A DNA stretch of 64,000 nt from an uncultured Alphaproteobacteria bacterium (GTDB lineage: Bacteria > Pseudomonadota > Alphaproteobacteria > SP197), in contig CALSLK010000011.1 of NCBI GenBank assembly GCA_943787175.1, positions 1 to 64,000 on the forward strand. Direction: 5' to 3'. Position 1 is the stretch's first letter. The number at the start of each line of letters is the position of its first letter. The notes beneath the pieces are model-generated. The model had not been told where the DNA came from. It was given only the letters and a program-made list of their open reading frames with translations, and made no database searches. A program made the translations under genes and the position numbers. Shown here in pieces: positions 4,330 through 57,984 of the stretch.

Positions 4330-4643
4330 TTTTGTTGCCCCCTCAAGCGCCGGGCGTTCGCTCCGCTTTATCTTTCAGCCTCAGTCGCCGGCACTCGCTC
4401 CGCTCGCTTGGCTAACGCCGCATGCGCGGCGGGGTCGCCGTCGCTCCCCGTCGGCCCAAGCGGGCCTCCCCATGAACGCACCACCTGAGCTGATAGTGAT
4501 ACGCACCCACCACCGCTGGTGAGCAGGCATTCGGCGGCGAGAGCGAAGCGGCCGCCGACCGGTGCGACTGCGCCGGCGCGCCGCCAGGCGCGTAAGCCAA
4601 GCGTGCGGAGCACGCGCCCGGCGTCTGAGGAAACAAACAAAAA
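4330..4643. repeat. dispersed structured repeat element, copy 1 (one 60 bp unit)
   Basis: The 470-base gap between ald and the flavin reductase gene is filled by a GC-rich element. Its ends are inverted repeats of about 26 bases: CCTCAAGCGCCGGGCG on the left and CGCCCGGCGTCTGAGG on the right, each flanked by T- or A-rich tails. Inside are several hairpins, for example CGCCGCATGCGCGGCG and CGTGCGGAGCACG. A 60 bp unit lies at 4471-4530. A second copy at 56692-57064 has the same ends and the same arms but two 60 bp units. There is no convincing ORF in it. Confidence 0.85.
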
Positions 4644-4656
4644 CTAGCGGCTAAGC

Positions 4657-5262
4657 CTACAATCCCGGCCGCAGCATCCGGAAGGTGCCGCCGGCGACGG
4701 CATAGTTGGCATAACCCAGCCGCGCGATGATCTTCTGGGCTTCAGGGTCGAATCGGCCCTCTTCCAGGGCATCGTCGCGGATGTGGATGCCGATCACTTC
4801 GCCGAAGACCAGAAGGTTGGGCCCGCCGTCCCCATTCTGGGGAATCTCCAGCGTGTGCATGTAGCGGCATTCAAACGACGCCGGACTGGCCGCGATACGT
4901 GGTGTCTTGATCAGTTCGCAAGGCGCCAGCTCCAACTCGGCCAGCTTGGATTCGTCTACACCCGGATCGACCTCTTCAGAGGTCGCATTCATCTTTTCAC
5001 GCAGATCCCAGGTCACCAGATTGTGCACGAACTCACCCTGTTCGGCGGCGTTGCGTGCGCTGTCCTTGGCCTGCCCCGACCCTCCAGCGGAAAAGAAAAT
5101 CACCGGTGGGTCATCAGCTACCGCATTGAAGTAGCTGTAGGGAGCAACATTGTTCGAACCGTCCTGGTTCAAGGTCGTGAACCAGCCGATCGGCCGTGGT
5201 GTGACCAATGCCTTAAAGGGATCGCGCGGCAGTCCGTGGCCATTTTTGGGTTCATAGAACAT
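4657..5262 (-). CDS. flavin reductase-like domain protein (FMN-binding split barrel)
   Basis: A 201 aa protein of the flavin reductase-like FMN-binding family. It carries TPRPIGWFTTLNQDG (residues about 26-40), NVAPYSYFNAVADDPP and FVHNLVTWDLREKMN, all typical of this split-barrel family; family members reduce or bind FMN. It is the last gene of a minus-strand run, adenosine kinase then GST then this gene, with only 14 bases after the GST stop. A GAGGAA sequence overlaps the GST stop region and may serve as its ribosome site. The partner oxygenase or substrate cannot be told. Intact frame. Confidence 0.85.
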   Translation of the reverse strand: MFYEPKNGHGLPRDPFKALVTPRPIGWFTTLNQDGSNNVAPYSYFNAVADDPPVIFFSAGGSGQAKDSARNAAEQGEFVHNLVTWDLREKMNATSEEVDPGVDESKLAELELAPCELIKTPRIAASPASFECRYMHTLEIPQNGDGGPNLLVFGEVIGIHIRDDALEEGRFDPEAQKIIARLGYANYAVAGGTFRMLRPGL

Positions 5263-55141: not shown

Positions 55142-55822
55142 ATGGCTTCGATGTCACCATCATCATCACCGCCTTCCGTCGCTGGTCTGCTTGCCGCGGC
55201 CGGCGGCGGCATGCGGCTTGGTGGTCAGCCCAAAGCCTTTTTGCGCCACCGCGGCCGCACCATGCTGGAACATGGCGTCGACTACCTGCGTCTGGTCGCA
55301 GAGCAATTGATGGTGGGTTTGCCTGGCGACAGGCTCGAGGAGGGCCGCGCGCTTTTGTCTGGCACTGGGGCGCAATGCCTGGCTGGTGGCGCGACCAAAC
55401 AGGAAACAACGCGGTTTCTGCTGGAGGGCTGCACGCAAGAGGTTGTCATTGTTCATGACGTCAGCCAGTTCATGCCTTCGCCCGATCTGCTGGCCCGCGC
55501 TCTGGCCGGGCTTGTGGATGCCGATGCCTGCACACCATCTGTGTTGCTCCCGGTTCGCGGTGCCCTGGCAACCCGCGACCAGGAAGGTTGGATGACCGAT
55601 GTGATTGATCGTGAAAACGCCGTCATGTCCCACACGCCCCAGGCCTTTCGCAGATTGGCGCTGGTGGACGCGCTCGAACGCGCGCAGCGTGAAGGCTGGT
55701 TGGAAAGTGGCCTCTATGCTCTGGTTCACCGCAATGGCGGGCGGGTTCGCATGATCGAGGGCGACCCCGGACAGTTAAAACTGACCTACCCTGAAGACCT
55801 CGCAGTTCTGGAGCAGGCATGA
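55142..55822 (+). CDS. IspD-like nucleotidyltransferase (diverged)
   Basis: 226 aa with the architecture of 2-C-methyl-D-erythritol 4-phosphate cytidylyltransferase. The nucleotide loop AAAGGGMRLGGQPKAFLRH (about 18-36) keeps the Arg and Lys used in catalysis, VVIVHDVSQFMPSPDLLARAL (about 101-120) replaces the usual HDxARP, and HTPQAFRRLALVDAL and GQLKLTYPEDLAVLE are family-like at the C terminus. The change at the HDxARP motif suggests a different sugar or alcohol phosphate. It is coupled (ATGA) to the HAD gene. Start 55142 has only a weak ribosome site. Intact. Confidence 0.75.
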   Translation: MASMSPSSSPPSVAGLLAAAGGGMRLGGQPKAFLRHRGRTMLEHGVDYLRLVAEQLMVGLPGDRLEEGRALLSGTGAQCLAGGATKQETTRFLLEGCTQEVVIVHDVSQFMPSPDLLARALAGLVDADACTPSVLLPVRGALATRDQEGWMTDVIDRENAVMSHTPQAFRRLALVDALERAQREGWLESGLYALVHRNGGRVRMIEGDPGQLKLTYPEDLAVLEQA

Positions 55823-56685
55823 GTGCATCAATGCCACGAATCGAGACGGGCCTGCGTCATGTTGTGGACGGTCACGACGGGTTTTTCGTCGATCTCTGGG
55901 GCACGCTCCATGATGGCCATGATCCCTTGCCGGGCGCCGCAGAATGTCTGCAGGCCCTGCGCAGGTTCGGACCGGTCTGTCTGCTCTCCAATTCGCATCG
56001 CCGGCGCGAGGTCGAAGTGCAGCGCCTGGAAACCATGGGTTTCAGTACCGGCGATTACGACGGTCTGGTCACCGCAGGCGAGGTTTGTCGCGAGCGTCTG
56101 AAGGGCGATTTACCGCCTGGATGCGGCAACCGGTTCTTCTTTGTCGGTCTGGAAGAAAACGCCAGCCTGTTTGATGATCTTGATGTTGTCAGAGCCGACG
56201 CCATTGATGAGGCCGATTTTGTCCTGATTGGTGATCCTGAGAACGACAAGCAGAACGTCGAAGCCTACGAACCCCTGTTGCGGGCTGCGTTGGAACGCGC
56301 ACTTGTTGTCGTCTGCCCCAACCCCGATCGCTGGTCGTTCTGGGGCACCCAGCGGCGCGTCAAACCAGGCGCCATTGCCGACCACTATGAAGCAATGGGC
56401 GGGCAGGCGCTCTGGTACGGCAAGCCCTGCGCCAACACCTTCGAGGCGGGTATGGATGCCCTCACCACGCGGCCGACAAAGGTCATGGTGATCGGCGACG
56501 GCATCAGCAACGACATGGCCGGTGCCCGCGATGCCGGTATGGACGCCTGCTTTGTCGCCGGTGGCCGCGAAGCCCCGGGCCTGGGGATTGCGGCAGGCGA
56601 AGCGCCTGACCCCACTGCGCTGAAACGGTTGTTCGCAGAGGAAGACGTGAACCCTCTGGCGACCGTGGCATTGTTTGTTTTTTAG
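55819..56685 (+). CDS. HAD superfamily class IIA phosphatase
   Basis: 288 aa. Motif I FFVDLWGTLHDGHDPLPGA (residues about 22-40, nucleophile Asp25 in the D-x-W-G-x-x-H form), motif II VCLLSNSHRRRE near 54, and motif IV VMVIGDGISNDMAGARDAG near 222. This matches the NagD-like IIA group with the D-x-W-G start. Start ATG 55819 overlaps the stop of the IspD-like gene by four bases, so the pair may form and remove or activate the same sugar or polyol phosphate. Its stop is seven bases before repeat element copy 2. Intact. Confidence 0.87.
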   Translation: MSASMPRIETGLRHVVDGHDGFFVDLWGTLHDGHDPLPGAAECLQALRRFGPVCLLSNSHRRREVEVQRLETMGFSTGDYDGLVTAGEVCRERLKGDLPPGCGNRFFFVGLEENASLFDDLDVVRADAIDEADFVLIGDPENDKQNVEAYEPLLRAALERALVVVCPNPDRWSFWGTQRRVKPGAIADHYEAMGGQALWYGKPCANTFEAGMDALTTRPTKVMVIGDGISNDMAGARDAGMDACFVAGGREAPGLGIAAGEAPDPTALKRLFAEEDVNPLATVALFVF

Positions 56686-56691
56686 GATTCT

Positions 56692-57064
56692 TTTTGTTCC
56701 CTCAAGCGCCGGGCGCGTGTTCCGCTTTGTCTTTTAGCCTCAGTCGCCGGCGTTCACTCCGTTCACTTGGCTAACGCCGCTTGCGCGGCGGGGTCGCAGT
56801 CGCTCCCCGTCGGCCCAAGTAGGCCTCCCCATGAACAAACCACCTGCGCTAATAGTGAAACGTTCCTTGCTCCAGCGTTGAGCAGGCATCATGCACGCAC
56901 CACCTGAGCTATTGGTTAGACGCACCCTGCACCACTGGTGAGCAGGCATTCGGCGGCGAGAGCGAAGCGGCCGCCGACCGGTGCGACCGCACCGGCGCGC
57001 CGATAGGCGCGTAAGCCAAGCGATGCGGAGCATGCGCCCGGCGCCTGAGGGAACAAACAAAAGA
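56692..57064. repeat. dispersed structured repeat element, copy 2 (two 60 bp units)
   Basis: Same element as 4330-4643: ends TGTTCCCTCAAGCGCC on the left and GGCGCCTGAGGGAACA on the right, T/A-rich flanks, and the same arms. It has two 60 bp units (56830-56889 and 56890-56949) where copy 1 has one. Fills the gap between the convergent HAD and LysR genes; no ORF seen. Confidence 0.88.
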
Positions 57065-57072
57065 CTCCCCAC

Positions 57073-57984
57073 TCACTTCCGGTCAATCGCATCCTGGGCG
57101 TGCTCGGCTTCTTCCAGAAGCCAGGCGCGGAAGGCTGCAACCTTTGGCTTTCGGGCGGTGCCCTTTGGGTAGACCAGCCAGTGTGACAGGTTCTCGTCGG
57201 TCAGGTCGCCAAAGGGCGTCACCAGACGTCCGTCTTCCAGGTCGTCCTGCATGATGATCTGGCTGCCCAGTGCCACTCCCAGACCGGCCGCCGCAGCTTC
57301 CAATGCAAGATCGCTGCTGTCGAAGAACAGCCCCTTGCTGCCGTCCACGCCTTTGATGTGCAGCGCGGCCAGCCAGTAACGCCAGTCTTCGTCGTTGCCT
57401 TCATGGAGCAGGGTATGATGGCGCAGGTCTTCGGGCGTGCGCAGGGGCGGGTCGCGTTCCATCAGTTCGCGATTGCAGACCGCGACAAAGCGATCCTCGA
57501 ACAGCTTGTCGGAATCCAGATTGGGCCAGTCGCCCGTGCCATAACGGATGCCGCAATCAACATCCTCGCGGCCAAAATCGACATTGCGTTCGGTGGTGCC
57601 GATGCGCACTTCGATATCGGAATGTTTGATCTGGAAGTCGCGCAGGCGCGGAATGAACCAGCGCACCGCAAAGGTCGGCAACATGGAGACCGAAAGTGGC
57701 CCATGGGCGTCGTGACTCTGGATCAGATCGGTGCCATCGGCGATCAGGTCAAATGCCTGGCGCAGGAAAGGCAAATAGATCTCACCCTCGTCGGTCAGCC
57801 ACAGCCCGCGCCCGTGGCGCTCGAACAGGCGCATGTCCAGCCGCTCCTCCAGCGCCTTGACCTGATGGCTGACGGCGGCCTGAGTCACATTGAGTTCCGC
57901 AGCCGCCTTGGTGAACGAAAGGTGGCGTGCCGCTGCTTCAAAAGCGCGCAGAGCGTTCAGGGGAGGGAGGCGGCGTGAACTCAT
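57073..57984 (-). CDS. LysR-type transcriptional regulator (GcvA-like) 3
   Basis: 303 aa. Winged helix LPPLNALRAFEAAARHLSFT and VTQAAVSHQVKALEERLDMRL near 6-57, effector domain with LSVSMLPTFAVRWFIPRLRDF and GLGVALGSQIIMQDDLEDG. Closely related to the regulator at 53712. Divergent from a 43-aa ORF at 58128 with a T-N11-A site just upstream of its start and the shared 22-base motif between them. Intact. Confidence 0.93.
   Translation of the reverse strand: MSSRRLPPLNALRAFEAAARHLSFTKAAAELNVTQAAVSHQVKALEERLDMRLFERHGRGLWLTDEGEIYLPFLRQAFDLIADGTDLIQSHDAHGPLSVSMLPTFAVRWFIPRLRDFQIKHSDIEVRIGTTERNVDFGREDVDCGIRYGTGDWPNLDSDKLFEDRFVAVCNRELMERDPPLRTPEDLRHHTLLHEGNDEDWRYWLAALHIKGVDGSKGLFFDSSDLALEAAAAGLGVALGSQIIMQDDLEDGRLVTPFGDLTDENLSHWLVYPKGTARKPKVAAFRAWLLEEAEHAQDAIDRK

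What the first reader, a model, noticed from the sequence alone, without database searches (positions are those of the whole stretch)
4330..4643. A 314-373 bp structured repeat element of unknown type, present twice
Copies at 4330-4643 and 56692-57064 share inverted terminal repeats of about 26 bases with T/A-rich outer tails, several strong hairpins, and no ORF. It is neither a simple REP nor an obvious IS, and both copies sit in intergenic gaps next to gene ends. It could be a MITE-like non-autonomous element or a structured RNA.
Basis: seen in the sequence. Interest (0 to 1): 0.7.

Follow-up and report, generated by a model that had tools for sequence, protein, structure and literature searches.

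The report
Nested, REPIN-like palindromic gene-end repeat
The two copies are members of a ~25-copy family of small gene-less palindromic repeats that sit just after genes in a group of uncultured Rhodospirillaceae-like marine bacteria; they behave like non-autonomous mobile DNA whose new copies repeatedly end up at the hairpin tip of older copies of the same family, which is unusual because the enzyme that would move them was not found.

Summary
Confirmed and extended. The elements at 4330-4643 and 56692-57064 are real insertions. The genome holds 60 half-units forming about 23 outward-facing inverted pairs. Sister genomes have the same gene junctions without the element: copy 1 in G005 and G002, copy 2 in G005 and G009. 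The element is an inverted pair of a ~110-nt unit with three covarying hairpins, ending in T/G-rich tails. There is no Rfam match, target-site duplication, shared ORF, Y1/RAYT gene, or autonomous element with these ends. About 40 nested ends in five genomes break at one point, the tip of terminal hairpin 1. At gene junctions shared with G004 the insertion point is mostly the same, but the resident element is usually inverted and of another subtype, and its closest relatives are in its own genome. Best reading: a non-autonomous REPIN-like mobile repeat that re-occupies its own old sites; a new family, a variant of a known kind. The shared unit, mostly solo, occurs in 20 of 289 sampled alphaproteobacterial genomes.

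The parts
4330..4366 (+). Outer T-rich tail plus nested terminal remnant 't' of copy 1 (CCTCAAGCGCCGGGCGTTCGCTCCGC, cut at the hairpin-1 tip)
4367..4466 (+). Left half-unit of copy 1 (tail TTTATCTTTCAG, tag CCTCA, hairpins 1-3)
   Evidence: CM R1 match, 84 bits; HMM
4467..4530 (.). Variable middle of copy 1 (one 60-nt unit, short 'S' type)
4531..4643 (-). Right half-unit of copy 1, inverted, tag and tail outward
   Evidence: CM R1 match at 4531-4642, 126.8 bits, E 2.7e-27
4596..4622 (-). Terminal hairpin 1 of the right half (GCCGGGCGCGTGCTCCGCACGCTTGGC, with conserved G.T pairs)
56688..56725 (+). Outer tail and nested terminal remnant of copy 2, 87% complementary to 57025-57062
56726..56830 (+). 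Left half-unit of copy 2
   Evidence: CM R1 match, 92.4 bits
56830..56949 (.). Middle of copy 2: two 60-nt direct repeats, 75% identical, explaining the length difference
56950..57062 (-). Right half-unit of copy 2, inverted
   Evidence: CM R1 match, 124.5 bits
3071..4195 (-). Flanking gene: alanine dehydrogenase (start codon ~135 bp from copy 1)
   Evidence: Pfam AlaDh_PNT_N/C; ORF
4657..5262 (-). Flanking gene: flavin-reductase-like protein; its stop codon is 14 bp from copy 1
   Evidence: Pfam Flavin_Reduct
55819..56685 (+). Flanking gene: HAD-family hydrolase; stop codon 6 bp before copy 2
   Evidence: Pfam Hydrolase_6
57073..57984 (-). Flanking gene: LysR regulator, convergent; stop codon 10 bp after copy 2
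   Evidence: Pfam LysR_substrate/HTH_1

Best explanation
The element is a non-autonomous mobile repeat that works like a REPIN: two copies of a small multi-hairpin unit arranged as an outward-facing inverted pair. SHOWN: dispersed copies, precise empty sites, no target-site duplication, lineage-specific amplification, positions next to stop codons, and nested ends that break at one point, the TCC tip of terminal hairpin 1. INFERRED: an unidentified enzyme acting in trans recognises the CCTCA-tagged, wobble-bearing hairpin as single-stranded or cruciform DNA and inserts new copies at gene ends, preferentially into the hairpin tip of a resident copy, most of whose remainder is then lost. This would explain why gene junctions stay occupied across species while the resident element changes orientation and subtype.
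For: Copy number and architecture: 60 half-units in G000, close pairs outward-facing, ~23 inverted pairs of 211-388 bp. Empty sites at both window loci. Covariation of three helices within the genome (48 double-change cells against 15.7 in shuffles) and across genomes (46 against 19.5). No TSD in 55 two-ended elements. Nested junctions: 48 with a T-tail, 41 of them at a tag-to-tag spacing of 34-45 nt, i.e. at the hairpin tip; outer and inner ends differ in type in 29 of 42 typed cases, against simple slippage of one end. At sites shared by G000 and G004 (flanks 75-99%, mostly 85-92% identical): 8 of 12 full pairs inverted, 9 of 12 of different middle type; insertion points mostly the same, and one site shares an old nested end but carries different inner elements. 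Nearest relative of a right-half unit is in its own genome for 18/22 (G000) and 22/24 (G004). Gene context 44 convergent / 43 tandem / 12 divergent, against 46/203/72 at element-free junctions.
Against: No mobilising gene identified; no Y1/RAYT, and IS110 presence does not track the elements. No copy pair flanks a transposase-sized gene in G000. Sequence ends are not sharp: the T-rich tail fades over ~12 nt. Closest full-length copies in G000 are only ~92% identical, so activity is not demonstrably current. All genomes compared are unnamed or MAG assemblies and orthologous sites are not statistically independent.
Confidence: 0.6

Rival explanations
1. Ancient insertions kept at the same sites, with ectopic gene conversion and inversion between copies (recombination between the inverted ends) swapping interiors; no transposition in recent time.
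For: Insertion points mostly identical between G000 and G004 at shared sites; species-wise homogenisation of units; inverted ends allow either orientation.
Against: Does not by itself explain why nested old ends are cut at one position, the hairpin tip, in most of 48 cases, nor the empty sites at both window loci in sister species unless the elements were lost precisely there. Shared end homology is only ~40 nt.
Confidence: 0.2
2. A classical MITE: an internal-deletion derivative of a DDE insertion sequence, moved by that IS's transposase, with duplications eroded by age.
For: Inverted ends of ~38 nt, no coding capacity, precise empty sites.
Against: No TSD signal in 55 elements; no autonomous copy with these ends among the model matches in G000 or in near-complete G008 and G002; the ends are covarying hairpins shared with solo units across the class, unlike typical IS ends.
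Confidence: 0.12
3. A selected structured RNA or DNA element at gene ends (termination, 3' end stabilisation) that happens to be repetitive.
For: Strong folding and covariation, bias towards gene 3' ends and convergent junctions, conserved positions.
Against: Empty sites in sister species; orientation flips at the same site; the two halves keep their wobble pairs on opposite strands; T-runs lie at the 5' side of the hairpins rather than after them, and terminator scans are at chance; no Rfam match.
Confidence: 0.08

Closest known systems
REPINs (REP doublets) with RAYT transposases, Bertels and Rainey 2011 (PMC3116915)
   Same: Inverted pair of palindromic units forming a larger hairpin, intergenic, non-coding, amplified within a genome.
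   Different: No Y1/RAYT gene in the genome or its nine congeners; unit is ~110 nt with three hairpins and a CCTCA tag, not a short GTAG-tagged hairpin; self-nesting at the hairpin tip.
CGTC-tagged REPs of Alphaproteobacteria, Di Nocera et al. 2013 (PMC3733652)
   Same: Alphaproteobacterial, tag at hairpin foot (CCTC is listed there as a variant of CGTC), dimers common, no dedicated transposase known.
   Different: Those are single hairpins with 8-9-bp stems that begin with A-T pairs and end in a CCA-like tail; here the stem begins GCC and there are three hairpins. A TGTC-tagged repeat of that look sits inside many T-type copies of this element.
Correia/NEMIS, ERIC, RUP, YPAL and other bacterial MITEs (review PMC2229807)
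   Same: Small intergenic inverted-repeat elements with internal length variants and stable folding; YPAL targets are near dyad symmetries.
   Different: Most of those listed duplicate a target (often TA); none was detected here. No sequence relation was found.

Membership tests
REPIN/RAYT system | Inverted doublet of palindromic REP units | tested here: met
   Outward-facing inverted pairs of half-units in five genomes
REPIN/RAYT system | RAYT / Y1 transposase gene in the genome, adjacent to REPs | tested here: not met
   PF01797: no match in G000 or nine congeners, while controls ring; G000 is ~92% complete
REPIN/RAYT system | GTAG-type tetranucleotide tag and short single-hairpin unit | tested here: not met
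   Tag is CCTCA; unit has three hairpins over ~75-110 nt
MITE (IS-derived) | Terminal inverted repeats, no coding capacity | tested here: met
MITE (IS-derived) | Target-site duplication | tested here: not met
   No k-mer excess at fixed offsets in 55 elements
MITE (IS-derived) | Autonomous IS with matching ends | tested here: inconclusive
   None seen among model matches in G000 and in near-complete G008, G002; not all transposase families were searched
CGTC-tagged REP (Di Nocera) | CGTC/TGTC/CCTC tag, 8-9-bp stem starting with A-T pairs, CCA-like tail | tested here: not met
   Tag can read CCTC, but the stem starts G-C, C-G, C-G and the unit has three hairpins
Rfam structured RNA | Match above gathering score | tested here: not met
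Integron attC / group IIC intron | attC boxes; domain V or reverse transcriptase | not tested
   Considered from the sequence only

The most novel reading that the evidence does not exclude
A self-targeting mobile element: a dedicated, unknown hairpin-specific enzyme inserts new copies precisely at the tip of the terminal hairpin of resident copies, so that old sites are serially re-occupied (nested 'matryoshka' turnover) without target duplication, in a class-wide CCTCA-tagged repeat superfamily that was not found in the papers searched.
Probability: 0.35. Interest if true: 0.72.

Novelty: new variant of a known kind. Interest (0 to 1): 0.5.

Why it matters
It adds an apparently undescribed family of REP-like repeats spread over Alphaproteobacteria and, in this genus, a derived mobile form with an unusual signature: positions are conserved between species while the occupying copy is swapped and flipped. 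That signature can be read from genomes alone and makes the open question of how transposase-less palindromic repeats (such as CGTC REPs) spread testable: look for an enzyme that acts at hairpin tips. It also warns against reading shared positions of bacterial repeats as orthology.

Tried and rejected
(1) Parent IS among distant matches L014-L017: ORFs are ordinary genes, apart from a transposase-like fragment in L016; the matches are solo repeat units. (2) C8:108726 and 110087, 1.3 kb apart, as ends of an autonomous element: same orientation, enclosing a monooxygenase-like gene. (3) RAYT: absent. (4) IS110/IS1111 (suggested by insertion into palindromes): absent in element-bearing G005, G002 and G008, abundant in element-free G003. 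(5) TSDs. (6) Idea that nested ends restore matching end types on both sides: concordance 15/30 nested against 13/29 simple, p = 0.80. (7) Nested ends as slippage duplicates of one end: outer and inner types differ in 29/42 typed cases. (8) Conserved ORF. (9) Bidirectional terminator: T-runs on the wrong side, terminator hits at chance. (10) Literature search for the sequence strings gave no paper. (11) Plasmids: one weak match, annotated acyl-CoA dehydrogenase, in Niveispirillum.

Full report
OBSERVATION. The terminal sequence CCTCAAGCGCCGGGCG is exact at 4341 and 56700, with inverted partners at the other ends. In copy 2 the two 38-nt arms are 87% complementary. Both fold far better than shuffles. 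A search of the source genome (G000, 38 contigs, ~92% complete; the window is contig C11) gave 54 matches. A covariance model of the half-unit gave 60. So the family has roughly 25 full or near-full copies plus fragments.

ANATOMY. Each element is an outward-facing inverted pair of one ~110-nt unit: a T/G-rich tail of ~12 nt (TTTTGTTTGTTC or TTTGTCTTTTAG), the tag CCTCA, hairpin 1 (GCCGG...TCC...TTGGC), hairpin 2 (CGCnnC...GnnGCG), and hairpin 3 (around GCnGTCGC); right halves carry a fourth palindrome. Left and right halves align to each other. Helices covary: 48 cells with changes on both sides against 15.7 +/- 2.9 in shuffles. Hairpin 1 keeps two G.T wobble pairs in all 26 aligned units of the genome and in most units from other families. 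Because the two halves lie on opposite strands, one transcript cannot show both wobbles, so I infer recognition of DNA rather than RNA. The middle is variable: one ~60-nt unit in copy 1, two in copy 2, and in 'T-type' copies a TGTCATCCCGG...CCGGGATGACA palindrome at the centre. That palindrome looks like a CGTC/TGTC-tagged REP (PMC3733652). The T tail belongs to the element, since the empty copy-1 site lacks it.

WHERE IT SITS. In 105 element loci from six genomes, element junctions are 44 convergent, 43 tandem and 12 divergent (6 at contig edges), against 46, 203 and 72 at element-free junctions of the same loci (heuristic gene calls, called with a home-made hexamer score, and sites shared between genomes are not independent). 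Copy 2 fills the gap between two convergent stop codons, leaving 6 and 10 bp. Copy 1 lies 14 bp after the flavin-reductase gene and ~135 bp before ald.

IT INSERTS. The flanking genes of both window copies are adjacent without the element in sister genomes: copy 1 site in G005, G002, G006 and G007, where G005 and G002 have an intergenic gap of ~155-160 bp against 461 bp in the window; copy 2 site in G005 and G009, with no element between the two genes. No target-site duplication is detectable in 55 two-ended elements.

SITES ARE SHARED, OCCUPANTS ARE NOT. Comparing flanks of 105 loci, 17 of 30 G000 elements match a sampled G004 element locus on one or both flanks, and others match G009, G005, G002 or G008. 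At the 12 sites with full elements and both flanks matched in G000 and G004, 8 elements are inverted relative to the flanks and 9 have a different middle type. The insertion points are mostly the same. Right-half units are nearest to another unit of their own genome in 18 of 22 (G000) and 22 of 24 (G004) cases, and the occupant of the orthologous site is usually not the closest unit of the other genome. So positions are conserved but content turns over.

NESTING AT THE HAIRPIN TIP. Many elements carry extra terminal pieces outside the full element. Among 48 junctions with a T tail, 41 have a tag-to-tag spacing of 34-45 nt, meaning the older end is cut just after the TCC(G) tip of hairpin 1 and a new tail starts there. 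At one site (G000 C5:208528 / G004 C2:23259) both genomes share the same old end, recognisable by a GCGTCGG variant, but have different inner elements in opposite orientation. Outer and inner end types differ in 29 of 42 typed cases, which argues against simple slippage of one end.

WHO MOVES IT. No Y1/RAYT gene was found in G000 or nine congeners. IS110 does not track the elements. No pair of ends enclosing a transposase-sized gene appears among the matches in G000, nor in near-complete G008 and G002. The enzyme is unknown. REPIN excision footprints that do not span the whole element are reported for RAYT systems (PMC3116915). That is a suggestive parallel only.

DISTRIBUTION. Model matches by genome: G000 60, G004 72, G009 72, G005 26, G002 6, G008 4, a few in sister genera, and none in G001, G003, G006, G007. 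A pattern scan of genome-contig hit only two named assemblies: an uncultured Alphaproteobacteria MAG and Rhodospirillaceae bacterium SI072_bin42. At E <= 1e-5 the unit occurs in 20 of 289 sampled alphaproteobacterial genomes, 17 of them outside the genus, in the examined cases as solo or tandem units. Seven decayed solo units also exist in G000. Structure covaries across those genomes: 46 double-change cells against 19.5 in shuffles.

VERDICT. Best explanation: a non-autonomous, REPIN-like mobile repeat family, with new copies apparently inserted into the hairpin tips of resident copies. Mobility by insertion is well supported. Self-targeting is inferred and could be mimicked by conversion between copies. 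It works like a REPIN but is not filed as one, because RAYT and tag criteria were tested and not met. The searched library holds no paper with its sequence. Novelty: new variant of a known kind.

LIMITS.

Noticed in passing
L158, L160, L161-L167 and L014-L017 (other alphaproteobacterial genomes); L149-L155 in G000: A solo ~75-nt, CCTCA-tagged three-hairpin unit is dispersed in 20 of 289 sampled alphaproteobacterial genomes, sometimes in tandem (L161, L162); it looks like the parent of this element and was not found described.
   Followed up: partly
L158, L160, L014, L016: In other families the unit is itself nested between arms such as CTCGATGATCG..CGATCATCGAG, in several cases with outer ends ATACCA..TTGGTAT, i.e. 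palindromes within palindromes.
   Followed up: no
L149 (G000 C6:373713-373845): A solo unit whose hairpin-1 tip holds another palindrome (ACCCGACCTGATCGGGTT).
   Followed up: no
G000 C24:14384-14771, C11:78784-79157, C8:108726 and C8:110087; most G004 copies: A TGTC-tagged REP (TGTCATCCCGG..CCGGGATGACA) sits at the centre of, or directly beside, elements of this family.
   Followed up: partly
G005 C16:954-1179 and C2:442398-442623: Two loci of G005 are identical over at least 685 bp on one side of the element and 99.9% on the other: a recent duplication or redundant assembly.
   Followed up: no
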